Below are positions 28,480-61,443 of a stretch of 64,000 bases of DNA, one piece after another. How positions within the stretch are numbered: position 1 is the first letter of the stretch; the number at the start of each line of letters is the position of its first letter. Under the pieces are notes generated by a model that saw nothing but the letters and a program-made list of their open reading frames with translations, was not told the origin of the DNA and ran no database searches. The DNA is taken from positions 71,770 to 135,769 of the forward strand of contig NZ_LOJI01000035.1 of assembly GCF_001595965.1 (NCBI RefSeq). Direction: 5' to 3'. This stretch comes from Polynucleobacter yangtzensis (lineage in GTDB: Bacteria > Pseudomonadota > Gammaproteobacteria > Burkholderiales > Burkholderiaceae). Both the position numbers and the translations under genes were made by a program.

Positions 28480-28555
28480 GGGCGCTTAGCTCAGTTGGTA
28501 GAGCGTCTGCCTTACACGCAGAATGTCGGGAGTTCGAGCCTCTCAGCGCCCACCA
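28480..28555 (+). tRNA. tRNA-Val (anticodon TAC)
   Basis: GGGCGCT...AGCGCCC acceptor stem with encoded ACCA, D-arm TTAGCTCAGTTGGTAGAGC, anticodon loop CTTACAC, T-loop TTCGAGC. 76 bases. A TACAAT -10-like element lies at 28455-28460. Confidence 0.97.
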
Positions 28556-28662: not shown

Positions 28663-30126
28663 ATGTTTGATACCGTCCGTAAACACCAGCGAATTCTGCA
28701 ATTTGTATTAATGCTTTTGATTGTTCCGTCATTTGCTTTTTTTGGCATCTCAAGCTATTCCAGCTTTTTAGACAAAGAGACGGATCTAGTCAAAATCAAC
28801 GGCAAGCCCATTACTGCTCAAGAGGTAGATACAGCAGCTAAACGCCAAGCAGAACGAGTAGGTGGTAATGCGCAGATTGCTCAAAGCCTCCAATTTAGAC
28901 AGGCTATATTGAATGAGTTGCTGCAACAACGAATTTTAGGTTTTGCTGTTGGTGATCTTCGTTTGCAAGTAGGCAAAGAGGCTCTGGTTAAAAGCTTACA
29001 AAATATTCCACAGATTCGCGCTCTGTATAAGCAAGATGGTAGTTTTGATGACGCTCGTTTCAAGCAATTGCTAGCAAGCAATGGAATGAATGAAGAGCAG
29101 TTTTACGCTAGCCAAGCATTTGATTTAAAGATTGGTCAGCTGGTGAACTCAGTGGCGCGCACTGAAATCGGTAGCCCTAAATTATCTGAAATTATCTCAA
29201 CTCTATATGAGACGGAGCGTCAAGTGCAAGCGATGTCTTTTGATGCCAAGGATTACCTATCCAAAGTAAATCCTTCGCAAGAGGAGTTGCAAGCCTTTTA
29301 TACCGCAAATGCCAAGCTGTTTGAGAGTCCTGAGTATGTGGATGTTGAGTACATTGTTCTTAAAGCCGATCCAAAGGAAGATGCTAAGGTATTTAGTGAA
29401 AAGGCTGATCAGTTTGCCAACATGACTTATGACCAATCAGATAGTCTTAAGCCGGCCGCAGATAAATTGAAGCTGAATGTTCAAATTCAAAAGGGCGTAA
29501 CCCGCTCTGGCGCCTCTGGTGTTGCAAAGGATCACCCGCTAGCCAATCCAAAGGTTGTTCAATCTCTCTTTGGTGATGAGGCCGTTAAGAACAAACGCAA
29601 TACTGAAGCAGTGCAAACATCCCCAGGCGTATTTGTTTCTGCTCGAGTAGTAACTTTTCATCCTGCGCAAACGCTTCCATACAAAGATGTTGCTGCGGAA
29701 GTGAAGCGTCAAGTGAGTCAGCGTTTGGCTGAGAAGCTGGCAATTAATGCCGCTGCCGATCGTTATGCTGCATTAGAAAAGGATCCTAAAAGCGCATCAG
29801 GTTTTGCTAGCCCAGTTTGGGTTTCCAGAAATAAACCAGCTAATTTAGTTGGTGGTGCGCTTGATCAGATAATGTCCATTAGCCAAGATAAATTCCCGGC
29901 CCTCGTATCAGTTAGCAACCCTGGCGTTGGAGCCACCCTGTATCGTGTTGATCAAGTTCGTCAACCAACTGTTGTTGATGCCAAAGTTCATAAAGCACAA
30001 GCCCAACAAATCCAGGCTTTAGCAGCCCAGTCTGAGTTTGCAGGATTCATGGCTTACTGGAGGGATGTTGCTGGAGTGAAAGTAATCAATCCACTGAAGC
30101 CAATGTCATCTGGTTCCGGAAGCTAA
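28663..30126 (+). CDS. ppiD: PpiD/SurA-N domain periplasmic folding factor lacking the parvulin domain
   Basis: 487 residues. The N-terminus (FDTVRKHQRILQFVLMLLIVPSFAFFGI) is the single PpiD membrane anchor, and residues 40-215 are the SurA_N_3 chaperone domain. The C-terminal part (ADQFANMTYDQSDSLKPAADKLKL onward) matches the post-parvulin tail of PpiD. The parvulin domain that normally lies between them (around residue 235) is absent: no HILV, GGDLG or FGWHII motif is found. Usual length is above 600 residues. The reading frame is open throughout, so this is a clean deletion rather than decay. It should still act as an inner-membrane-anchored chaperone at the Sec exit. Confidence 0.82.
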   Translation: MFDTVRKHQRILQFVLMLLIVPSFAFFGISSYSSFLDKETDLVKINGKPITAQEVDTAAKRQAERVGGNAQIAQSLQFRQAILNELLQQRILGFAVGDLRLQVGKEALVKSLQNIPQIRALYKQDGSFDDARFKQLLASNGMNEEQFYASQAFDLKIGQLVNSVARTEIGSPKLSEIISTLYETERQVQAMSFDAKDYLSKVNPSQEELQAFYTANAKLFESPEYVDVEYIVLKADPKEDAKVFSEKADQFANMTYDQSDSLKPAADKLKLNVQIQKGVTRSGASGVAKDHPLANPKVVQSLFGDEAVKNKRNTEAVQTSPGVFVSARVVTFHPAQTLPYKDVAAEVKRQVSQRLAEKLAINAAADRYAALEKDPKSASGFASPVWVSRNKPANLVGGALDQIMSISQDKFPALVSVSNPGVGATLYRVDQVRQPTVVDAKVHKAQAQQIQALAAQSEFAGFMAYWRDVAGVKVINPLKPMSSGSGS

Positions 30127-60648: not shown

Positions 60649-61443
60649 ATGTTCACTAAACATCAATTACTTTCAATCAGCCTTCTGAGCGCCACCCTTT
60701 TGACTTCAGGTGCGTATGCGCAAAATGCAGTCATCGTGAACGGCAAATCTATTCCAAAAGCGCAGCTTGATAAATTGGTTCAACGTTCAGGTCAACCAGA
60801 TAATCCTCAAGTACGCGACCAGGCGCGCGAGATGCTTGTGACTCGTGAACTCATTTTGCAAGAGGCCGACAAACGGGGCGTTATTCAAAAAGAAGCTGTT
60901 CGTGAGCAGTTGGAGCAAGCACGTATTGGCGTATTAGTATCTGCTGTGTTCGAAGATTTTGTTGAAAAAGAAGGTGTTGCCGAGTCCGATCTTAAAGCGG
61001 CTTATGAGTCCGTTAAAGCTCAATACACCGGCAAGGAATATCACGTAGAGCATATTCTGGTTGAAAAGGAATCGGATGCAAAAGCAATTATTGCTCAGTT
61101 AAAGGCTGGCGCTAATTTTGAAGAGATTGCTAAAGCTAAATCAATGGACCCAGGCTCAGCTAAAAATGGCGGGGATCTTGGTTGGGTAAGCGATAAAGCG
61201 CTAGTACCAGAGTTCTCAAAGGCAATGGTTCAGCTGAAGAACGGACAAATTACAGATAAGCCTGTTAAATCTCAATTTGGTTGGCACATCATTAAGATGA
61301 TTGATTCTCGTGATGTAAAAGCTCCAAGCATGGAAGAAATGAAGGATCAGCTTAAACAAATGATCATGTCTGATAAGAATTGGCAAAAAGCGAAATTTGC
61401 AGAGATGATGCAAAAACTCCGTGCCAAGGCAAAGGTTCAATAA
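60649..61443 (+). CDS. Periplasmic parvulin-type peptidyl-prolyl isomerase
   Basis: 264 residues. Signal peptide FTKHQLLSISLLSATLLTSGAYAQ, a SurA_N-like helical region, then a complete PpiC parvulin domain at about 130-225 (YHVEHILVEKESDAKAI, MDPGSAKNGGDLGWV, KSQFGWHIIKMID). It catalyses proline isomerisation during folding of exported proteins. It supplies the parvulin activity that the ppiD gene of this window has lost. Confidence 0.93.
   Translation: MFTKHQLLSISLLSATLLTSGAYAQNAVIVNGKSIPKAQLDKLVQRSGQPDNPQVRDQAREMLVTRELILQEADKRGVIQKEAVREQLEQARIGVLVSAVFEDFVEKEGVAESDLKAAYESVKAQYTGKEYHVEHILVEKESDAKAIIAQLKAGANFEEIAKAKSMDPGSAKNGGDLGWVSDKALVPEFSKAMVQLKNGQITDKPVKSQFGWHIIKMIDSRDVKAPSMEEMKDQLKQMIMSDKNWQKAKFAEMMQKLRAKAKVQ

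What the first reader, a model, noticed from the sequence alone, without database searches (positions are those of the whole stretch)
29350..29420. PpiD that has lost its entire parvulin domain
The reading frame joins the SurA_N part (ending near EYIVLKADPKED) straight to the post-parvulin tail (AKVFSEKADQFANMTYDQ), with no parvulin motif between, leaving 487 residues instead of more than 600. The gene is otherwise open, so the deletion looks selected or neutral rather than recent decay. E. coli PpiD's own parvulin domain is reported as inactive, which makes its loss informative about function.
Basis: partly seen in the sequence, partly recalled or inferred. Interest (0 to 1): 0.55.

Follow-up and report, generated by a model that had tools for sequence, protein, structure and literature searches.

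The report
Chaperone PpiD without its parvulin domain
In the freshwater bacterium Polynucleobacter, and separately in other mostly small-genome bacteria, the membrane-anchored periplasmic chaperone PpiD has cleanly lost its prolyl-isomerase (parvulin) domain while the rest of the protein stays under strong selection, so the domain looks like a removable accessory.

Summary
Window 28663-30126 (+) encodes a 487-residue PpiD downstream of lon, with no canonical parvulin domain (PF00639). Compared with full-length Burkholderiales PpiD, about 151 residues are missing at window residues 236-242 (E. coli residues about 241-382): the whole solved parvulin domain (2kgj, 264-359) plus the two helices flanking it. 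AlphaFold2 shows the split "third domain" rejoined as one confident unit.

The loss is genus-wide and old: every sampled Polynucleobacter has it, and dN/dS is about 0.03. All 31 full-length PpiDs checked in detail, including E. coli, keep the domain. It recurs: a family that includes strain LSUCC0115 (MWH-UniPo clade), two further genera with a different junction, and 20 more genomes from 14 other gammaproteobacterial families. At least two independent losses in Burkholderiales are supported (three by parsimony). The partner YfgM is kept in 41 of 41 genomes.

One premise fails. E. coli's domain is inactive, but the domain in Burkholderiales keeps both active-site histidines in 30 of 30, so the lost domain was probably catalytically competent.

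Best explanation: PpiD works as a SecYEG/YfgM-anchored holdase, and its parvulin module is dispensable and repeatedly excised, mostly in small genomes. I found no report of natural loss.

The parts
28663..30126 (+). ppiD, parvulin-less form, 487 aa
   Evidence: ORF; SurA_N_3 2.6e-30 and PRK10788 (PpiD) partial match; single copy in the genome
28687..28758 (+). N-terminal transmembrane helix (residues 9-32)
   Evidence: AF2 helix 9-32; hydrophobic sequence; alignment to E. coli PpiD
28774..29205 (+). N-terminal half of the NC (SurA-like chaperone) domain, residues 38-181
   Evidence: Pfam SurA_N_3 1-160; mapping to E. coli 38-186, domain limits from PMC9643414
29206..29328 (+). N-terminal part of domain 2 (residues 182-222)
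   Evidence: mapping to E. coli 187-223; AF2 strand 185-194, helix 206-215
29329..29661 (+). Domain 3, rejoined into one continuous unit (residues 223-333)
   Evidence: AF2 strand 225-234, helices 241-257, 263-268, strand 274-280, helices 296-309, strands 317-333, pLDDT about 90
29368..29388 (+). Excision junction (residues 236-242): about 151 residues of the full-length form missing here
   Evidence: alignments; E. coli 240 maps to 235 and 383 to 243
29674..29964 (+). C-terminal part of domain 2 (residues 338-434)
   Evidence: mapping to E. coli 477-578; AF2
29971..30102 (+). C-terminal helix of the NC domain (residues 437-480), the YfgM-contacting region in E. coli
   Evidence: mapping to E. 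coli 580-622; AF2 helix 440-470; contact reported in PMC9643414
25940..28372 (+). lon, the upstream neighbour that marks the ppiD locus
   Evidence: ORF; lon directly upstream of ppiD in 71 of 71 named loci with enough flank

Best explanation
This is PpiD, a SecYEG/YfgM-associated inner-membrane chaperone, from which an in-frame deletion of about 450 bp in the ancestor of Polynucleobacter removed the parvulin module and the two helices that connect it. Shown: the domain is absent; the loss is fixed in the genus and recurs in other lineages; the remaining architecture is intact and under purifying selection; YfgM is retained. Inferred: the protein still acts as a holdase on chains leaving the translocon, anchored by its transmembrane helix and clamped by YfgM through the NC domain; prolyl isomerisation is left to SurA and PpiC; and the parvulin is a detachable accessory, dispensable mostly in small genomes.
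For: Domain mapping; no PF00639 in the gene; AF2 model with domain 3 continuous at pLDDT about 90; best solved-structure match is the PpiD-YfgM complex 8zht. dN/dS 0.024-0.033 with six close relatives. YfgM family PF09976 in 41/41 genomes. SurA and PpiC remain. Losses on the PurL tree: 3 changes, and holding all short forms as one clade is rejected, p=3e-5. Twenty further parvulin-less PpiDs in 14 families, median genome 1.75 versus 2.9 Mb. Experimental precedent: E. coli PpiD lacking the parvulin domain rescues surA skp cells and prevents aggregation even better than wild type (PMC2956729); YfgM and PpiD act as one unit (PMC9643414).
Against: No expression or function data for any of these proteins. 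PpiD lacking parvulin was less stable in E. coli (PMC2956729). The PpiD tree alone does not reject a single origin of the short forms (AU p=0.14-0.21). The genome-size comparison is not corrected for phylogeny, and its long-form set is a score-ranked part of a truncated list.
Confidence: 0.8

Rival explanations
1. Loss is purely neutral: genome reduction and drift removed a domain with no remaining benefit in that lineage. (This concerns why the domain went; it is compatible with the best explanation of how the remaining protein works.)
For: Mostly small genomes; E. coli protein works without it (PMC2956729).
Against: The lost domain kept its active-site histidines in nearly all full-length relatives, so it is under selection elsewhere; some short-form genomes are 2.9-3.7 Mb and P. 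rarus lies on a 3.15 Mb contig; very small genomes such as G070 (1.2 Mb) and G571 (1.3 Mb) keep a split, long-type match.
Confidence: 0.45
2. Adaptive or partner-driven loss: the parvulin is a docking or substrate-sorting module (for example for DsbA, as proposed from AF2Complex models in PMC9797188), and it goes when that partner pathway changes.
For: Recurrent, and domain-precise in many lineages; DsbB absent in 6 of 7 genomes of family f18 and patchy in Polynucleobacter.
Against: DsbB is present in G014, G003, G031, G017, both g46 and 3 of 4 g45 genomes, which lack the domain, and DsbA-family proteins are in 40 of 41 genomes; some long-form genomes lack DsbB too. So disulphide-pathway loss is not a prerequisite.
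Confidence: 0.2
3. The parvulin domain was moved to another gene rather than lost.
For: A PpiC with a good parvulin domain lies at window 60649-61440.
Against: That PpiC is orthologous in full-length-PpiD relatives (42-58% identity), so it predates the loss; no extra parvulin gene in the genome.
Confidence: 0.03
4. The short form is ancestral and full-length relatives gained the parvulin.
For: Short forms occur in many families.
Against: Parvulin sits at the same place in E. coli and in all full-length Burkholderiales examined; short forms have at least two different junctions, which fits deletions and not a shared empty site; parsimony on two gene trees gives 3 changes.
Confidence: 0.05

Closest known systems
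E. coli PpiD (623 aa; NP_414975.1; parvulin domain 2kgj)
   Same: N-terminal anchor, SurA-like NC domain, domains 2 and 3, C-terminal YfgM-contacting helix, locus downstream of lon
   Different: E. coli keeps the parvulin domain (264-359), catalytically inactive and lacking both histidines; here the domain is gone. E. coli has hupB between lon and ppiD, here a tRNA-Val
Engineered E. coli PpiD lacking the parvulin domain (Matern et al. 2010, PMC2956729)
   Same: Same domain removed; the rest kept
   Different: Made in the laboratory by an EcoRV deletion, with reduced stability; here natural, old and under selection, and two flanking helices are also removed
Campylobacter jejuni PpiD Cj0694 (PMC5368265)
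   Same: PpiD-class periplasmic chaperone
   Different: Keeps an active PPIase domain
SurA N-Ct chaperone module
   Same: Parvulin-free SurA-type chaperone module is functional (PMC2956729 citing Behrens 2001)
   Different: SurA is soluble; the natural SurA of this genome keeps both parvulin domains

Membership tests
PpiD family | N-terminal membrane anchor | tested here: met
   AF2 helix 9-32, hydrophobic
PpiD family | SurA-like N-terminal chaperone domain | tested here: met
   PF13624 2.6e-30
PpiD family | Domains 2 and 3 and C-terminal helix homologous to full-length PpiD | tested here: met
   residues 241-487 align to the C-terminal part of long PpiDs, E down to 1e-50; Foldseek best hit 8zht PpiD-YfgM
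PpiD family | Locus downstream of lon | tested here: met
   E. coli locus
PpiD family | Canonical parvulin (PF00639) domain | tested here: not met
   Absent. The protein is a PpiD ortholog by descent and locus but not a PPIase; it falls far below the NCBIfam PpiD equivalog cut-off (92.8 versus 493 bits)
PpiD family | Association with YfgM and SecYEG | not testable with these tools
   YfgM gene family present in all 41 genomes tested; binding not tested
Parvulin PPIase | Catalytic parvulin fold with active-site histidines | tested here: not met
   no such motif in the protein; marginal Rotamase_2 match only
Parvulin PPIase | Domain 3 homologous to parvulin | tested here: inconclusive
   strand/helix order in the AF2 model resembles a parvulin, but profile-profile comparison gives no signal

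The most novel reading that the evidence does not exclude
[quoted passage not shown] many lineages with small genomes have excised it, in a few preferred ways that leave the host fold whole, while enterobacteria kept the shell and lost only the catalysis. The E. coli protein would then be an atypical model for the family.
Probability: 0.45. Interest if true: 0.65.

Novelty: new variant of a known kind. Interest (0 to 1): 0.48.

Why it matters
What the parvulin domain of PpiD does has been an open question since the E. coli domain was found inactive and dispensable. Recurrent natural excisions, set against full-length relatives with intact active-site residues, are a comparative experiment: they say the chaperone core and the YfgM/Sec association are what is conserved, warn against generalising from E. 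coli, and give ready pairs of related species in which to look for the clients or partners (for example DsbA) that need the domain.

Tried and rejected
Parvulin relocated to another gene: rejected. Domain 3 as a degenerate parvulin: topology suggestive, Rotamase_2 marginal, profile-profile comparison negative, so kept only as a possibility. DsbA/DsbB loss as the cause: DsbB survives in several short-form genomes, rejected as a prerequisite. Short form as ancestral: disfavoured by outgroups and differing junctions. PDB sequence search with the window protein gave no hit. The first PurL tree used the wrong ORF for at least one GC-rich genome and was redone. The AF2 model of a full-length Massilia PpiD has low confidence over part of the parvulin (307-374), because the other aligned sequences lack it.

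Full report
Observation. The gene at 28663-30126 (+) is an open frame of 487 residues, the only PpiD in its genome. It lies downstream of lon with a tRNA-Val between them; lon is directly upstream of ppiD in 71 of 71 named loci with enough flank, and near it in E. coli (lon-hupB-ppiD), which supports orthology. Pfam finds the SurA-like N-terminal domain and no canonical parvulin; a genome-wide search with PF00639 finds SurA (two domains), two PpiC-type proteins and one sub-threshold match, but nothing at this locus.

What is missing. Aligned with full-length PpiDs, the protein lacks 151 residues at positions 236-242 relative to most long Burkholderiales forms. In E. coli numbering the missing part is about 241-382, so the whole solved parvulin domain (2kgj, 264-359) is gone together with the helix before it and the helix after it. 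Published models describe PpiD as nested domains: an NC domain, a second domain (187-223 + 477-578), a third (228-261 + 360-470), and the parvulin inside the third (PMC9643414). Everything except the innermost module and its two connecting helices is kept. In the AlphaFold2 model (mean pLDDT 84.9) the third domain, formerly split, is one confident unit: strand 225-234 leads through a short loop into helix 241-257. The best solved-structure match is the PpiD-YfgM complex (8zht).

Pfam Rotamase_2 matches residues 204-343 at 27.6 bits against a cut-off of 27. The match spans the junction and lies on the retained domain 2/3 region; alone that segment scores 24.8. PF00639 and PF13616 do not match, and a parvulin HMM made here separates 31 full-length PpiDs (E at most 8e-27) from all short ones (best 11.6 bits, E 0.0014). 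I read this as no parvulin domain. Whether domain 3 is itself a remote parvulin relative is undecided: its strand and helix order is similar, but profile-profile comparison gave nothing.

Age and spread. Every sampled member of the genus is short: 37 genomes and 61 (overlapping sets). The genus is identified as Polynucleobacter by the named scan, whose hits include P. rarus, P. necessarius and P. kasalickyi; of those 80 loci only the Massilia one is long. The deepest lineages in the genus, 37-49% identical to the window protein, share the junction. Six close relatives give dN/dS of 0.024-0.033, so the short gene is maintained. Thirty full-length Burkholderiales PpiDs examined carry the domain.

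Recurrence in Burkholderiales. A second family, f18, which includes the coastal isolate LSUCC0115 of the MWH-UniPo clade (PMC6952679), has a nearly identical junction in all nine members aligned. Two further genera, g45 and g46, lack the parvulin but keep both flanking helices. On a PurL tree short and long need three changes; one clade of Polynucleobacter plus f18 is rejected (AU p=0.002) and one clade of all short forms too (p=3e-5), but f18 plus g45/g46 is not (p=0.40). So at least two losses are supported and three are most parsimonious. The PpiD tree itself, without the excised columns, also needs three changes but cannot reject one origin.

Recurrence elsewhere. A class-wide search with the short-form profile gave 20 further short candidates in 14 families; none has a parvulin. 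Junctions fall into two main types: parvulin alone removed with both helices kept (most), or parvulin plus helices removed (G910 and family f81, as in Polynucleobacter), with two intermediates. In families f163 and f184 short and long forms coexist, implying still more events. The short-form genomes are small (median 1.75 Mb against 2.9 Mb for 60 listed long-form genomes, Mann-Whitney p=4e-7), but this is not corrected for phylogeny, the list was truncated, and some genomes are incomplete; exceptions exist on both sides (short at 3.7 Mb, long-type at 1.2-1.3 Mb). The count of 20 among 347 genomes with a match is a lower bound.

A premise corrected. In 30 of 30 full-length Burkholderiales PpiDs both active-site histidines are present (in the motifs H-I-L and G-Y/F-H), whereas E. 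coli has neither; 18 of 20 full-length PpiDs sampled elsewhere in the class also have both (one of these reads HLL and was missed by the script's pattern). C. jejuni PpiD is an active PPIase (PMC5368265). The domain lost here was therefore probably competent, and E. coli's decayed domain looks like the exception. This is inferred from motifs, not measured.

How it works. Shown by others in E. coli: PpiD without the parvulin rescues surA skp cells and prevents aggregation better than wild type, though it is less stable (PMC2956729); PpiD and YfgM act as a unit at SecYEG (PMC9643414). Shown here: the anchor, NC domain and YfgM-contacting helix are retained, and the YfgM family is present in 41 of 41 genomes. 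Inferred: Polynucleobacter PpiD is a translocon-anchored holdase without isomerase function, and SurA and PpiC supply isomerisation. The PpiC in this window has orthologs in full-length relatives and is not a relocated domain.

DsbA hypothesis. AF2Complex modelling proposed that PpiD's PPIase domain recruits DsbA (PMC9797188). DsbA-family proteins persist in 40 of 41 genomes; DsbB is missing in 6 of 7 f18 genomes and in some Polynucleobacter but present in other short-form genomes. Loss of the disulphide pathway is thus not a precondition for loss of the domain; whether a DsbA contact is forgone cannot be told from sequence.

Novelty. Searches of the open literature for PpiD with Polynucleobacter, streamlining or domain loss gave no report of natural loss; most subscription papers are not held, so this is not proof. 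I rate it a new variant of a known kind.

Noticed in passing
window 60649-61440 (+): PpiC-type peptidyl-prolyl isomerase, orthologs at 42-58% identity in full-length-PpiD relatives and in most short-form genomes; only a weaker best match in g45/g46 (37-38%).
   Followed up: yes
window 28480-28555 (+): tRNA-Val (anticodon TAC) sits between lon and ppiD, where E. coli has hupB.
   Followed up: partly
G000:C5:31498-31740 and family f18 genomes: DsbB is patchy: the window's genome has only a half-length match (44.5 bits), and six of seven sampled f18 genomes have none although DsbA-family proteins remain in those six; a replacement oxidase was not looked for.
   Followed up: partly
L105 (CAMAZF010000004.1): A MAG record titled Bordetella parapertussis carries a parvulin-less PpiD of the f18 (MWH-UniPo-like) family; the species label looks wrong.
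   Followed up: no
L238 (G1160) and L228 (G1033): Two full-length gammaproteobacterial PpiDs also lack one or both active-site histidines, so catalytic decay of the domain seems to recur as well.
   Followed up: no
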